Shown here: positions 7,986 to 61,502 of the stretch, piece by piece
How positions within the stretch are numbered: position 1 is the first letter of the stretch
How the letters are laid out: every line of letters begins with the position of its first letter
Assembly: GCF_028389875.1 (NCBI RefSeq)
Contig: NC_084663.1
Span: 213,559,876-213,623,875, forward strand
Length of the DNA stretch: 64,000 nt
From: Rhea pennata
Taxonomy: Eukaryota > Chordata > Aves > Rheiformes > Rheidae
Direction of reading: 5' to 3'
The notes under the pieces: generated by a model
The model's database searches: none
Told to the model about the DNA's origin: nothing
What the model saw: only the letters and a program-made list of their open reading frames with translations
Program-made: the position numbers and the translations under genes

Positions 7986-8118
7986 CATAGAATCATACGG
8001 TTGGAAGGGACCTCTGGAGATCATCTAGTCCAACTGTCAGCATAACCCCGTACAGGGATTGAACCCACAACCTCAGCATTAGCAGCACCATGCTCTAACC
8101 AACTGAGCTAAACCTGCC
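7986..8118 (-). mobile_element. tRNA-Ile-headed SINE with CR1 tail
   Basis: Read on the minus strand, 8118 to about 8044 is a tRNA-like head: D-arm with A-box TAGCTCAGTTGG, T-arm with B-box GGTTCAATCCC, and an acceptor region ending GTACGGGG. It matches tRNA-Ile(AAT) closely except in the anticodon arm, which is degenerate, and at one extra T after the acceptor stem. From about 8043 to 7986 it continues into a CR1 3' tail (GTTGGACTAGATGATCTCC, then CCCTTCCAACC, ending TTCTATGATG). The whole unit is about 133 bp, with Pol III promoter boxes in the head and a LINE tail that CR1 reverse transcriptase could recognise. That is the classic layout of a tRNA-derived SINE. From memory, the zebra finch family TguSINE1 has this design; whether this copy belongs to it is not proven. 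I see no clean target-site duplication, which fits an old or CR1-type insertion. Confidence 0.85.
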
Positions 8119-11100
8119 TCCCAAAGCTGGGCATTAAGTATTGTGATCTGCTTCTTTATTTGTATTTTTGGCAAGAACCCTACCCAAATGTGACGTAGCA
8201 AAATAAGCCTTGGCTTTACTGGCCTAACAGACTAAAACCATGAAGAAATATAGCAAGCAGCTGGAAGCGGCCTAGGTGTTATGACTGGCCTAATGAGATG
8301 TAAGTGCAGTATCAGAGTGGGAAAGTTTGTGCTAGCAGGTATCCTGCTCTTGTGAAGATGAGTTTGCAAAGATACAGGGTAGGACCATGCTCCAGACAGG
8401 ACCTTCATGCTGTGACTCTCCCATGCAGATACTCTGGCTTCTTCACTGACTTTTCAGATTATTTAAACAGTGAAAAGCAATCATCTGGGATCCGGAATTG
8501 ATGCCAAGGAGCTTTGCAAAAATCTGTGGGGCTCCCACTCTCTGGCCAAGCATTTCCTTACACATCATGGGCTGATGCAGCAAGAACATGTGCAATAACG
8601 GATGAGGGAAGAGAAGGAAGAGGTTTCTGGGAGCAGCAGCCAGGTCTGTCCTAAGGAAACGTTTAGAGCTTGGCCTGTTGTGGAATTGGGCTCTTTAGGC
8701 TTCCACAAAAATGAAATATCAAGTGACAAGAGTCACATTTATTGGTTCCTACATTACCATACCAATACAGAGAGAAGGAATTCTTCCCACTAGGTGAGCT
8801 AAATAGTCACTATACCTTCCCCGCTCCCCAAACAGAAGACCTCGGACAACCCCTCCATCTTTTTGTAGGGGGAAGATGTTGACAAACTTGGTTGTCCCAA
8901 GAAGTTTGCAAGTGAAGACAGGAAGCATCACAGAAATTTCTATTCTGTATAAAACTATAACTCAGTATCTTGCTGCAAATGCTAGCCAGAACCAGCACCA
9001 CAGGGGAAACTGCAAAAATCTCTCTAGGATATGTTATGAGGTGAGGTACCTCAGGGAAAAGCTTCCTTCTGGCCCCTTTTCTCTCCTTAGTAGCTAGAAG
9101 TTGGGCCACACACTAAGTTATAGGAATTTATAGCTGTTCTTAAGCTTAATAATATCGATTACAGCTCTGGATAATGTGTTTTTTCCCTATACAGCTAATC
9201 TTTCCTTTGAAAGATATTGGCCCCGAGGCAACACTATTCTAATAAACTAATCAGGATTAGGGCTTGGGTCCATGCACTGTCCTGAAATAGTCCAAGCTGT
9301 GTAATTGTACATGTTCTCTTGTGTGGTTTTGGTGCTCTTCTCAAGCAGTTTCCAGGCAAAGCTCGGGGAGAATGAGTTGTTCTCAGCAGACAACACAGCT
9401 GAGGCCATTACGTTTTGGTATGGAAGAGAATTTGGTTCTGTGGATGTGGGCTATGCTATGCTAGTTGCCTTCTGGACCAGAAAACAGTCTCTGAATTATC
9501 TTATTTACTAATAGAGATGTAGCCAGTAATATTGTGTGGTTCTGAACTCCAGAGATGCTGGTTGTCCTCCTGTTCTTGGATTATTGCCCACCTATGGAGA
9601 AAGATTCCTGGCGTTAGGAGGCTTGGAGACAACGACTCAATGGGGAAGGCAGCAAAATTCAGGCTGGGAAAAGGATATTTTCAACAGTGTGCTTAATTAG
9701 CACATCTCTAGAAAGCAGGGTGGATTCTTCATCACAGGAAGGATTCAGAGATAAGTCGCGTCTTTTGGTGATGGTGATGCTCCAGCCCCTGCAGCAGGAG
9801 CTCTGCCTTGTGGGGGACAAGGGCTCTAGATTGAGTGAGGAGACAGTGCTGTTCATTGCTCCGTGTGCAGGGATCCCCATGACCTGTATTTCTCCAGAGG
9901 TCTGGGGTGGTGATAACAACAGGAGTGAACATCCCCAGGTTGATTTTGGGAGATGCCCCCTTGTCCCTGTGAGATGGGTCCTCTCCTCTCACTGGTATAG
10001 CTATTGCTTGGGGACTTTTCTTGTGTCTCTTCAGCTCTGCTTGGATGTGGAAAAGATTTTCTCTACTAGTTGGGACAAGGTAAAAGGAGAAGAGGGGATC
10101 AGGATATTCAACAGGCTACCTACGGGCACAGCTTAAATATTTTGGATGATTTAAAATGGGTTTTCATTGCTTGCTTAGTGGATTTGTATGTGGGCACTAC
10201 TGGTAAAAGCAGTGCTTTTCTTTACATGTGTCAGAAAAAAAAATCACTATCAAAGTTGAAAGGGTAGCTTTAAAGCCCTCCGAGCTCATTTTTCCTCCGT
10301 TTTCCATTGAATCCTCTAAGCCTTTTGATGTTTTACAACTGGCATGGAATCAAATCAAATATTTGGTCATACCTGCTTTGGAGATCCCAAACTCTCTTTG
10401 GCTCAGCTCTCAGGTGAGTAGAAGTTTCAGTGCTTCACTTTGTGCTGCTTAATTGACTTAAGAGCCTGAATTTGGTTTTCAAAACTGATTTACTTATGTA
10501 AGACCCTGCAGCCTACTGGCTTTCAATAAGCTAAAATATTTAACTCTGCAAGTGGACCAACGTAGGACTTCACACAGTGAAAGGTACCATGGCCTGGATA
10601 ATGAACAGTAATTTGTTAAGCCAACTATTAGGCTGATTCCCTTAGATCTTGACTGCTTATGATCACATCCTCACACTCCAATATTCCTCAGTACTTTAGC
10701 CATTCCAGTACTGAACACTACTAAACACCCATCAAATCGGGCCATGGTCTTCTCATGCCTGAGCAACTGTCTTACTGTCGCAGCAGTGATCTCTCATCAT
10801 TGGCCAAATGTCTTTTATGAGATACATGTAAAACTTGCAAAGTCATTATAAAAATGAAGATGTCTACCTAGAGAGCTTTGGGTTCACATCTTTCATGTTT
10901 CATTTGCAGCATTGTATTTCACACTATTGCCTGTGACTGTAGAATAAATCCAGAGTAAGCAGTACTGGCTTTAATGAATATACGCCAGATTTTCACTGCA
11001 GGTAAATTGGCAGTATTGCCTGCTTCACTAAAAAAATGAATTTTGCCAATGCTTTGTTACATTTTTTTTAACAGCTGCCAAAGCTGAATAGAGACTGGTT

Positions 11101-12031
11101 TGTGTCTAGCGAAGAACAAACTTGGAATAAATGAAACAGCTGCACAAAGATGTTCAACATAATAGGTAATGCAAATCTTTAAACAAAACCAGTGCCATCA
11201 AAGTCAAAATCTGAAAAGTTCTTAACAAAAAACATATTTGTAAAAAACAGATGGAAAAAAAATTGTTCTGAGCTATATAACAAGATCACATCAATCAGCC
11301 CAGCAGCAATGACACACACCAAAAGCCATAACCAGAACCAGATACAATACCAAGAGTGCCAAACTCCTCTGAAAGCAAAAGACGTTCAGCGTGAACAACA
11401 TCCTGGGAGACTGAGGACAGACAGGAGACATAGTACTTGTAGAAGTGTTTTATCTCCATAAAGTTGGGGATTTGGAGAATTAGGAATGGATAAATCCAAT
11501 ACGTTTTTCAACAAATCAGTTAAAAATACAGCCTTGAGTTCTCAGTCAGTCCTTTTTGTGTATACTGAAAAGACAGTGGTAACAGAGCTGTCTGTAAGAT
11601 GAACAAAACGCCATGATATATTCCCCAGTATATTTTTACGTCATCTTTGCCACTAGATGTCTCTGCTGACTTCACAGTGCTCTTCATGAGCTGCTTTTTC
11701 TGGTAAACAAGAGACATCAAGGTAGAAATCAAGATATGACAAAATCTGCTTGTGACTATAATTTCTAGGGTTTTGTTTCTCTGTAACAGTTTCTTCTGTT
11801 TGAGACAGAGCTATGAGTTCTTGAGAACTTTCTTAGATAGCTCCTCTTCTTCAAGGGTCAGAATAAGAGTGAGAAAACCTTGCTGTCATCCATCCATCGT
11901 TGTTCCTATTTCATAGCCTTCGTTGCTCATTCCAACATTCCAGTTCCTATCCCCTCCTAACTCCCTGATGGTCTTTCTGCTGCTTTCCAGGGGATCCTTC
12001 TCCTTAGACTTAATGTGCACCTCCAAGTGTG
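8119..12031. other. Non-coding stretch, no supported gene
   Basis: No coding gene is supported. The longest frame here (9687-10136, + strand, 149 codons) has no domain I can recognise and an unremarkable composition. One ancient repeat-like fragment near 10.94-11.01 kb is listed separately. Confidence 0.65.
10940..11012. repeat. Possible ancient amniote palindromic repeat fragment
   Basis: The block contains 'aatccagagtaa', then a middle section around 'ctttaatga', then 'tacgccagattttcactg'. The two ends are roughly complementary in sense. The pattern resembles a repeat I recall from turtles, crocodilians and birds of the form 'tctggagtaac...gttactccagatttacac'. It is degraded and I cannot align it formally. 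It could be coincidence. Confidence 0.35.
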
Positions 12032-60795: not shown

Positions 60796-61430
60796 CATAG
60801 AATCAAAGAGTCATAGAATCAGTAAGGTTGGAAGGGACCTCTGGAGATCATCTAGGCCAACCTCCCTGCTCAGCAGGGTCACCTAGAGCATGTTAGACAG
60901 GGTTGCATCCAGGTGGGCCTTGAAGATCTCCAGAGGAGTAGACTCCACAACCTCTCTGGGCAACCTGGTCCAGTGCTCCGTCACTCTCACAGGGAAGAAA
61001 TTCCCTCTCACAGTCAGGCAGAACTTCCTGTGCTTCAATTTCTGCCCATTGCCTCTTGTCCTGTCACATGGGACAACTGAAAAGAGTTTGTCTCCGTCTC
61101 CTTGACACCCTCCCTTCAGGTACTTGTACACATTGAGAAGATCCCCCCTCAGGCTTCTCTTCCCCAGGCTGAACAGTCCCAGCTCTCGCAGCTGTTCCTC
61201 ACAGGGCAGGTGCTCCAGCCCTCTGATCATCTTTGTAGCCCTACGCTGGACTCTCTCCAGCAGCTCCATGTCTGTCTTGGACTGGGGAGCACAGAACTGG
61301 ACACAGGACTCGAGATGAGGCCTCGCCAGGGCTGAGGAGAGGGGCAGGATCACCTCCCTCGACCTGCTGGCAATGGTTTTCCTAAGGCACCCCAGGAGAC
61401 CATTGGCCTTCTTGGCTGCAAGGGCACAAA
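60796..61430 (-). mobile_element. Young CR1 LINE 3' part, 5'-fused to tRNA-Pro pseudogene
   Basis: A well-preserved CR1 3' end of about 635 bp: tail 'catagaatcaaagagtcatagaatcag', the 3' untranslated region, and about 180 codons of the ORF2 C-terminus without a stop. ORF2 words include [66 protein letters not shown] and [14 protein letters not shown]. The uninterrupted frame shows this copy is younger than the one at 12-14 kb. Its 5' end joins a tRNA-Pro-like sequence within two or three bases (CCC, then TTTGTGCCC). Confidence 0.93.
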
Positions 61431-61476
61431 GGGCTCGTCCGGGATTTGAACTCAGGACCTCTCGGACCCAAACCAA
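60883..61476 (-). pseudogene. Open frame: CR1 ORF2 C-terminus reading out of a tRNA sequence
   Basis: The frame is open for 197 codons. The first 15 or so come from the tRNA-Pro-like segment (anticodon arm to acceptor end). It then enters CR1 ORF2 in its natural frame and ends at the natural ORF2 stop (60883-60885). An in-frame TGA lies just upstream and the first codon is TTG, so there is no sensible ATG start for the fusion. It lacks the endonuclease and reverse transcriptase. I regard it as a decaying retroposon frame that happens to be intact, not as a gene. Confidence 0.85.
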
Positions 61477-61502
61477 AAATCATATTCCTAGACCAACGAG
61501 CT
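61431..61502 (-). pseudogene. tRNA-Pro(TGG)-like pseudogene
   Basis: A 72-nt sequence on the minus strand aligns end to end with tRNA-Pro. The anticodon loop reads TTTGGGT, so the anticodon position is TGG, unlike the AGG gene at 19.8 kb. Damage: first base changed (A for G); A-box end AGGAA instead of AGGGG; anticodon stem largely destroyed (TTTGG opposite CCGAG); one T-stem/variable change (CCTGAG). The B-box GTTCAAATCC and 3' acceptor half GACGAGCCC are intact. It cannot fold as a working tRNA. It sits at the 5' end of the young CR1 in the same orientation, as in the other two tRNA::CR1 loci here. Confidence 0.93.

What the first reader, a model, noticed from the sequence alone, without database searches (positions are those of the whole stretch)
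7986..61502. Three independent tRNA::CR1 chimeras in one 64-kb window
At 7986-8118 (Ile-like), 19617-19866 (Pro-AGG) and 60796-61502 (Pro-TGG-like), a tRNA-derived sequence lies directly 5' of a 5'-truncated CR1, always in the same orientation. The CR1 breakpoint is different each time: about 58, 171 and 635 bp from the 3' end. Different tRNA species and breakpoints argue against copies of one family. They fit repeated template switching by CR1 reverse transcriptase onto tRNA, or repeated CR1 insertion just downstream of tRNA genes. tRNA-headed, CR1-tailed SINEs are known in birds (TguSINE1, from memory); I do not recall a proline-tRNA version.
Basis: partly seen in the sequence, partly recalled or inferred. 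Interest (0 to 1): 0.78.

Follow-up and report, generated by a model that had tools for sequence, protein, structure and literature searches.

The report
tRNA precursors captured by CR1 retrotransposon
All three tRNA–CR1 fusions in this window are real: one belongs to an ordinary repeat family, while the two proline ones are part of a wider pattern (26 of 35 tRNA-proline-like sequences read in this genome are fused to CR1 or a CR1-tailed repeat) in which the CR1 reverse transcriptase likely jumped many times onto unprocessed tRNA transcripts, seeding new repeat families and perhaps new tRNA genes.

Summary
The three tRNA::CR1 units are confirmed, all on the minus strand with the tRNA 5' of a 5'-truncated CR1. 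Unit 1 is not an independent chimera: 200 kb of random regions hold three more copies with the same junction. Units 2 and 3 carry tRNA-Pro. Of 35 tRNA-Pro-like loci read, 26 are joined in sense to CR1 or a CR1-tailed SINE, at about nine template positions: one SINE family (15 loci) plus 11 others. tRNA-Thr and tRNA-Ala have such fusions too; the 7 tRNA-Ser places read of 35 have none. In the Thr fusions the linker is the Thr gene's 3' trailer up to the pol III terminator; in the Ala SINE it is 69-75 nt of an Ala gene's 3' flank. This points to template jumping onto unprocessed pol III transcripts. Unit 3 sits inside an older CR1. No target-site duplications were found. Template-switched heads and TE-borne tRNA genes in birds are in print; the Pro, Thr and Ala heads, the trailer junctions and the recurrence appear new. 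Whether unit 2's perfect tRNA works is open.

The parts
8051..8111 (-).
   Evidence: RF00005 31.9 bits; same head and junction in L025, L027, L029
7984..8042 (-). Unit 1 tail: CR1 3' end (model position 554 onward)
   Evidence: nhmmer E 5.1e-12
19795..19866 (-). Unit 2 head: tRNA-Pro (AGG), identical over 72/72 to the head of L002
   Evidence: RF00005 53.9 bits, ARAGORN; alignment
19788..19794 (-). Unit 2 linker TGGTTTT (tRNA sense): likely pre-tRNA 3' trailer ending in the pol III terminator
   Evidence: sequence; not CR1, which usually reads GTGACGG before AGCACTGG. No read Pro gene has exactly this trailer; inferred from the Thr and Ala cases
19611..19787 (-). Unit 2 tail: CR1 3' end from model position 452
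   Evidence: nhmmer E 1.1e-55
61431..61502 (-). Unit 3 head: decayed tRNA-Pro (TGG-like), 62 of 71 aligned bases match
   Evidence: RF00005 30.7 bits
61428..61430 (-). Unit 3 linker TTT (the last T, 61428, may equally be CR1)
   Evidence: CR1 copy L010 reads CAGCAATGTGCCC here, the unit GAGCCC-TTT-GTGCCC
60796..61427 (-). Unit 3 tail: about 630 nt of CR1
   Evidence: nhmmer E 3.9e-219
61518..61778 (-). Older CR1 copy interrupted by unit 3, 5' part (model 1-252)
   Evidence: nhmmer E 4e-47
60582..60792 (-). Same older CR1 copy, 3' part (model 401-630); about 148 model positions are missing between the parts
   Evidence: nhmmer E 1.4e-31
12032..12344 (-). Comparison: CR1 copy without tRNA, with an internal deletion
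49493..49675 (-). Comparison: 5'-truncated CR1 without tRNA
49930..50040 (-). Comparison: 5'-truncated CR1 without tRNA

Best explanation
Units 2 and 3 are tRNA-Pro sequences joined in sense to a 5'-truncated CR1, and they likely arose when CR1 reverse transcriptase, copying a CR1 RNA at a target site, left that template early and jumped to the 3' end of an unprocessed tRNA transcript. The cDNA would then have run through the trailer (oligo-U end first) to the tRNA 5' end, giving leader-tRNA-trailer-CR1 in one insertion. Shown by sequence: the sense orientation, the junctions, the trailer identity for Thr, the gene-flank identity for Ala, and that unit 3 interrupts an older CR1. Inferred: the jump itself, that the acceptor was pre-tRNA in each Pro case, and the single event. 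Some such chimeras became SINE founders (Pro at CR1 position 486, Ala at 527). Unit 1 is a copy of a SINE of the same general kind.
For: (1) Thr fusions L064 and L065 have the linker GGCTGGGGACTGTTTT. The two Thr genes in the C6 tRNA cluster have the trailer GGCTGAGGGGACTGTTTTT, so the gene trailer, less two bases, runs to the terminator and is joined straight to CR1 446; the last four bases before the tRNA (AGCA) also match the gene leader. (2) The Ala SINE body is 69-75 nt of the 3' flank of a C6 Ala gene (60-67 of 69-74 aligned bases identical in the five loci scored), read past TTTT, then CR1 527; 4 of 6 loci keep GCAG of the leader. (3) Pro linkers TCCTTT (L009) and TCATTT (L032, L079) equal the trailers of Pro genes L037/L038 and L036 less one T. 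(4) 10 of 15 distinct Pro/Thr/Ala junction types (my tally) end in three or more T against 1 of 10 tRNA-less CR1 5' ends, p 0.007. (5) 26 of 35 tRNA-Pro loci are fused in sense; chance expectation 0.013. (6) Unit 3 interrupts an older CR1. (7) L039 is tRNA-Pro on the 5' end of a unit-1-type SINE, as an end-to-end jump would leave. (8) Unit 2 and L002 share CR1 break 452, but their tails end like different CR1 variants and their linkers differ.
Against: No target-site duplication signal: in 29 loci the longest match between own 5' and 3' flanks averages 5.3 nt against 5.0 for mismatched pairs; the one long match (L073) is an artefact of my script, which took its 5' flank twice. If a T that may belong to CR1 is not counted, only 7 of 15 junction types end in three T (p 0.065). 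TTTT before CR1 452 also occurs without a tRNA: of 7 exact genome sites, 6 have no recognisable tRNA and 1 has withheld letters; of 10 TTTGACRGAGCACTGG sites, two are CR1 5' ends near 446 without tRNA. The wider control did not complete. The linkers of units 2 and 3 match no read gene trailer exactly, and L032 (AGG) shares its trailer with a TGG gene that is not its nearest. Linkers of L035, L046, L039, Thr-456 and Ala do not end in a run of three T. About 148 model positions of the older CR1 are missing around unit 3, so the empty site is not exact. Several junctions are shared by two or more copies, so independent events are fewer than loci.
Confidence: 0.72

Rival explanations
1. All tRNA-Pro::CR1 loci are copies of one or a few ordinary SINE families, with linkers and breakpoints drifting afterwards; no repeated capture.
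For: 15 of the 26 fused Pro loci share the 486 junction; L032 and L079 share TCATTT and 446, and L009 and L032 share some tail changes; L064 and L065 share one Thr junction.
Against: Breaks at 2, 446, 452, 486, about 539, 565, two further 5' in CR1 and a SINE 5' end cannot come from one founder; linkers differ; anticodons and T-loop variants differ (L035 has TGG and CAACTCC, unit 2 AGG and CAAATCC).
Confidence: 0.13
2. CR1 inserted just downstream of resident tRNA genes, for instance guided to the terminator.
For: CR1 starts at or near the T-run in 10 of 15 junction types; some heads are intact (unit 2 and L002 72/72; L064 and L065 score 70 bits).
Against: Unit 3's tRNA lies inside an older CR1; 13 flanks of 7 fusions against 11 gene loci gave only two hits of 11-12 nt, both in reverse orientation; 15-locus and 6-locus families share their junctions at unlinked sites; the six C6-cluster tRNA-Pro loci read have no CR1 within 320 nt 3'.
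Confidence: 0.07
3. A tRNA-CR1 chimeric RNA was made before reverse transcription, by RNA ligation or read-through transcription, and then inserted.
For: Gives the same product; ligation is a named alternative for U6/L1 (PMC13174262 passages).
Against: Nothing in the sequence separates ligation from jumping; read-through needs a tRNA gene upstream of a CR1 in the source, and the many different breakpoints need many such events.
Confidence: 0.08

Closest known systems
TguSINE1 and PittSINE of passerines (PMC5729268; parts 1 and 2 of 4 read)
   Same: tRNA head, CR1 3' tail with ATTCTRTG octamer; the PittSINE head is explained there by template switching to another tRNA
   Different: Heads there are Ile and Asp; here Pro, Thr and Ala (unit 1 may correspond to the Ile type). 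Breakpoints here are many, and Thr and Ala linkers are tRNA-gene 3' trailers, which the parts read do not describe
tRNA genes carried by transposable elements in birds (Ottenburghs 2021; not held; only the Highlight PMC8044554 was read, whole)
   Same: tRNA-like sequences embedded in TEs, with selection said to hold the tRNA while the TE erodes
   Different: The Highlight gives no junctions, isoacceptors or mechanism of joining; what the full paper holds was not seen
Small-RNA/LINE-1 chimeras, U6/L1 and tRNA/L1 (PMC4476161 and PMC13174262, passages only)
   Same: Small RNA fused 5' of a truncated LINE, explained by template switching for sense cases
   Different: Human tRNA/L1 chimeras are 21 loci, mostly tRNA halves in antisense; here mostly whole tRNAs with trailers, sense, on CR1. 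One inconclusive turkey U6/CR1-like case is mentioned there
Pre-tRNA retropseudogenes in human (Schmitz 2004, cited in a passage of PMC4476161; not read)
   Same: Unprocessed tRNA precursor as template
   Different: L1-made pseudogenes in human; no CR1 fusion is mentioned in the passage

Membership tests
CR1-tailed tRNA SINE (general) | tRNA-derived head plus CR1 3' tail with a shared junction in several dispersed copies | tested here: met
   Unit 1 type: 4 copies in 264 kb; Pro-486: 15 loci; Ala-527: 6 loci
CR1-tailed tRNA SINE (general) | Units 2 and 3 share their exact junction with other copies | tested here: inconclusive
   Unit 2 shares CR1 452 with L002 and L003 but not their linkers; unit 3 has no twin among the 35 loci read; the list is not exhaustive
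TguSINE1 (for unit 1) | tRNA-Ile head | tested here: inconclusive
   Rfam says tRNA only; ARAGORN made no call for unit 1 and called relative L027 Ser
TguSINE1 (for unit 1) | Four diagnostic tail nucleotides against CR1-X1_Pass | not tested
   The consensus is not held and figures are not readable
TguSINE1 (for unit 1) | 8-bp ATTCTRTG end | tested here: met
   ATTCTATGA at the unit 1 end
TguSINE1 (for unit 1) | Eupasserine host | not testable with these tools
LINE template-switch chimera (U6/L1 type) | Small RNA in sense, 5' of a 5'-truncated LINE | tested here: met
   Units 2 and 3 and 26 of 35 Pro loci in all; the stretches fetched favoured this side (320 nt 3', 70 nt 5'), so other arrangements were hardly looked for
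LINE template-switch chimera (U6/L1 type) | Target-site duplication around the whole unit | tested here: not met
   No signal in 29 loci against mismatched pairs, apart from a script artefact; unit 3 not in that test. Whether CR1 insertions here make duplications at all was not tested
LINE template-switch chimera (U6/L1 type) | One insertion event | tested here: inconclusive
   Unit 3 nested in an older CR1 argues for it, but about 148 model positions are missing there
Functional tRNA gene (unit 2, L002) | tRNA conserved beyond its neutral tail | tested here: inconclusive
   0/72 against 20/176 and 22/169 tail changes (p 0.0013, 0.0004), but counting only rare tail states 0/72 against 5/163 and 9/164 (one-sided p 0.16, 0.035)
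Functional tRNA gene (unit 2, L002) | Transcription and charging | not testable with these tools
   No expression data

The most novel reading that the evidence does not exclude
In this bird CR1 acts as a standing tRNA-gene copier: its reverse transcriptase repeatedly takes freshly made pol III transcripts, with promoter boxes and terminator included, so each insertion is a complete new transcription unit. Some become SINE families with new heads (Pro, Ala, Thr) and some become working tRNA-Pro genes such as unit 2, so part of the tRNA gene set has been rebuilt by a retrotransposon.
Probability: 0.3. Interest if true: 0.72.

Novelty: new variant of a known kind. Interest (0 to 1): 0.52.

Why it matters
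SINE origin by template switching is usually reconstructed from one finished family. Here one genome holds the likely raw products: one-off fusions beside the families some of them may have founded. The Thr and Ala linkers record which RNA was copied (a precursor, not mature tRNA), which makes the state of the acceptor RNA testable, and suggests how CR1 could spread tRNA genes together with their terminators.

Tried and rejected
Rejected: unit 1 as an independent chimera. Rejected as a rule: 'TTTT linkers stop pol III, so only TTT chimeras become SINEs'. The Pro-486 family has TTTGTCTC in 15 of 15 copies, but the Ala family carries TTTT or a decayed form of it inside its body in 6 loci, and the Thr-446 fusion with TTTT has at least two copies. 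Rejected as proof: TTTT at CR1 452 (6 of 7 exact sites have no tRNA, 1 has withheld letters). Weak: purifying selection on intact Pro heads; Ala heads show none. L012, a tRNA-less CR1 after TTTT, matched no Rfam family at gathering score. TSD search: no signal; a function for it was written but not run.

Faults in my own scripts: the L035 rows are unsound, since I put in 1/72 by hand (the nearest read genes differ at 2) and its tail count includes linker bases; I do not use them. The L073 TSD value is an artefact. The L064/L065 head counts typed into one search were also by hand and are not used. The 15 junction types and their T-run status, and the stricter 7 of 15, are my tally.

Not answered: the control HHHHAGCACTGGAMCAGG, RF00005 on the genome (72, 96), the Pro-486 count (113, 121, 125), DNA queries with units 1 and 3 (32, 33, 54). 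Ottenburghs 2021 is not held.

Rows dropped or capped: old or double CR1 rows (17172, 60792, 60770, second L008 row, duplicate of unit 2). Of 35 Ser places 4 were fetched, 3 lie in the C6 cluster loci that were read, 28 further ones in the C10 array were not read. Of 125 Ala candidates 40 were scored and listed; 9 outside the cluster were fetched. In one search five of six Ala bodies were scored. L079 and the other pattern-search loci are not in the 35.

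
Full report
What is in the window. Three tRNA-derived sequences are each followed, on the minus strand, by a 5'-truncated CR1 3' end. Rfam finds no other tRNA in the 64 kb, at its gathering score or in a permissive scan. Four other CR1 copies in the window have no tRNA. The window lies in G000, a 1.27-Gb assembly; that it is a bird is inferred from the CR1 type and the first-stage reading, and the species is not known.

Unit 1 is ordinary. In 20 random 10-kb regions of the same genome a CR1 profile found 10 rows, among them three short tails (L025, L027, L029) with the same tRNA-like head and the same junction. 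Three in 200 kb would mean about 19,000 copies per genome, 95% range 3,900 to 55,600. It resembles TguSINE1, but the diagnostic tail positions were not tested.

Units 2 and 3 belong to a wider pattern. A 72-nt tRNA-Pro query found 33 places, a list the tool calls a lower bound. Thirty were fetched; with L002, L009 and unit 3, also on that list, and unit 2 and L003, that makes 35 loci read. Nine have no CR1 in the stretch read: seven gene-like copies, six of them with a T-run just after the tRNA (L030, L033, L034, L036, L037, L038; not L031), and two decayed ones (L045, L048). Twenty-six are fused in sense: 15 share tRNA-Pro, TTT and CR1 486, a SINE family; the others are unit 2, L002 and L003 (452), L009 and L032 (446), L035 (about 539, after a 9-nt linker), L054 (about 565), unit 3 (2), L041 and L046 (further 5' in CR1, confirmed against other copies), and L039, where tRNA-Pro precedes a whole unit-1-type SINE. 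The chance expectation for 35 loci is 0.013. A pattern search later added L079, a second TCATTT/446 Pro copy. Query bias: L002, L003 and L009 were first found with unit 2 itself.

Other tRNAs. A tRNA-Thr query gave 6 places: two genes in the C6 cluster and four others, all four CR1-linked. Of nine tRNA-Ala places fetched outside the cluster (40 of 125 candidates were listed), six are one SINE family; L074 and L075 have no CR1 in the stretch read and L076 has one only about 260 nt away. tRNA-Ser gave 35 places; the four fetched are not CR1-linked, the three in the C6 cluster lie in loci where no CR1 was found (L060, L063), and 28 more of a tandem array on C10 were not read. So capture is uneven among the four tRNAs tried.

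What was copied. The Thr fusion linker is the Thr gene trailer down to the pol III terminator, lacking two bases, and the Ala SINE body is 69-75 nt of an Ala gene's downstream flank, 60-67 of 69-74 bases identical; both Thr loci and four of six Ala loci keep four leader bases. Two Pro linkers equal trailers of read Pro genes less one T, though L032's head is not nearest to the gene whose trailer it shares. Hence the copied RNAs were most likely primary pol III transcripts. Over 15 distinct junction types, 10 end in at least three T against 1 of 10 CR1 ends without tRNA (p 0.007); leaving out a T that may be CR1's own, 7 of 15 (p 0.065). Against this, TTTT before CR1 452 is not special to tRNA: 7 exact genome sites, 6 without any recognisable tRNA and 1 with withheld letters. 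Of 10 exact TTTGACRGAGCACTGG sites, two are Thr fusions already known, one a Pro fusion (L079), one carries the Thr trailer with its head withheld, two are CR1 5' ends without tRNA (L078, L084), two lie inside longer CR1 copies (L077, L081) and two are not CR1 (L080, L083). Position 452 may be a common stop of CR1 reverse transcription; the control search for this did not complete. So the trailer reading rests on the Thr and Ala sequence matches more than on T-runs.

One event or two. Unit 3 interrupts an older CR1 whose 3' part is 34% from the consensus: the older copy runs from model 1 to 252, then unit 3, then 401 to 630. The tRNA was therefore not an old resident gene there, unless it had inserted alone first. 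Flanks of 7 fusions show no meaningful match to gene flanks. Target-site duplications were sought in 29 loci and not found.

Working genes? Unit 2 and L002 have perfect tRNA-Pro over tails 11-13% from the CR1 consensus (0/72 against 20/176 and 22/169, p 0.0013 and 0.0004), while L003, L009 and unit 3 have decayed heads (8/72, 10/72, 9/71) over tails of 10, 13 and 7%. Counting only rare tail states the contrast weakens (one-sided p 0.16 and 0.035), since tail distance may partly be subfamily difference. L032 has 2/72 (p 0.028, or 0.37 by rare states). Function is suggestive, not shown.

Known and new. CR1-tailed tRNA SINEs and head change by template switching are in print (PMC5729268, parts 1 and 2 of 4 read). 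That TEs carry tRNA genes in birds is in print (PMC8044554 read whole; the paper it describes was not held). LINE template switching to small RNAs is in print (PMC4476161, PMC13174262, passages; passages of PMC3747384 and PMC8665684 were also seen). The listings of my searches showed no paper on tRNA-Pro::CR1 or on pre-tRNA trailers at CR1 junctions; the library holds open-licence papers only, so absence there is weak. I file this as a new variant of a known kind.

Noticed in passing
L065 5' flank and that of another Thr-446 copy: Both share about 24 nt before the tRNA (GGACACAGCARCTGCCCTCTAGCA), with a weak CR1-like piece further 5': a longer leader transcript, a double chimera or a segmental duplication.
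   Followed up: no
G000:C10:24887971-25065735: 29 tRNA-Ser-like matches at a period near 5.95 kb: a tandem array containing a tRNA-Ser gene; one unit was read (L088).
   Followed up: partly
G000:C140: 22 of the 40 listed tRNA-Ala matches lie on this one contig, scattered over 4.3 Mb: amplified tRNA-Ala or a repeat with such a head.
   Followed up: no
window 12032-12344: CR1 copy with an internal deletion (model 295-580 missing) and a normal 3' end.
   Followed up: no
L039:70-218: tRNA-Pro directly 5' of a unit-1-type SINE: two tRNA heads in a row.
   Followed up: partly
L043 and L056: Two Pro-486 SINE copies, on C3 and C2, have similar 3' flanks, suggesting insertion in the same repeat or later duplication.
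   Followed up: no
L068-L073: The tRNA-Ala SINE ends near GATAGCCTACTACTA rather than in the usual run of CR1 octamers.
   Followed up: no
L062:1920-2333 and L062:6982-7395: Two CR1 copies with the same model range (216-628) in the C6 tRNA cluster, about 5.06 kb apart like the repeated Ala and Pro-like genes around them: a tandem duplication within the cluster.
   Followed up: no
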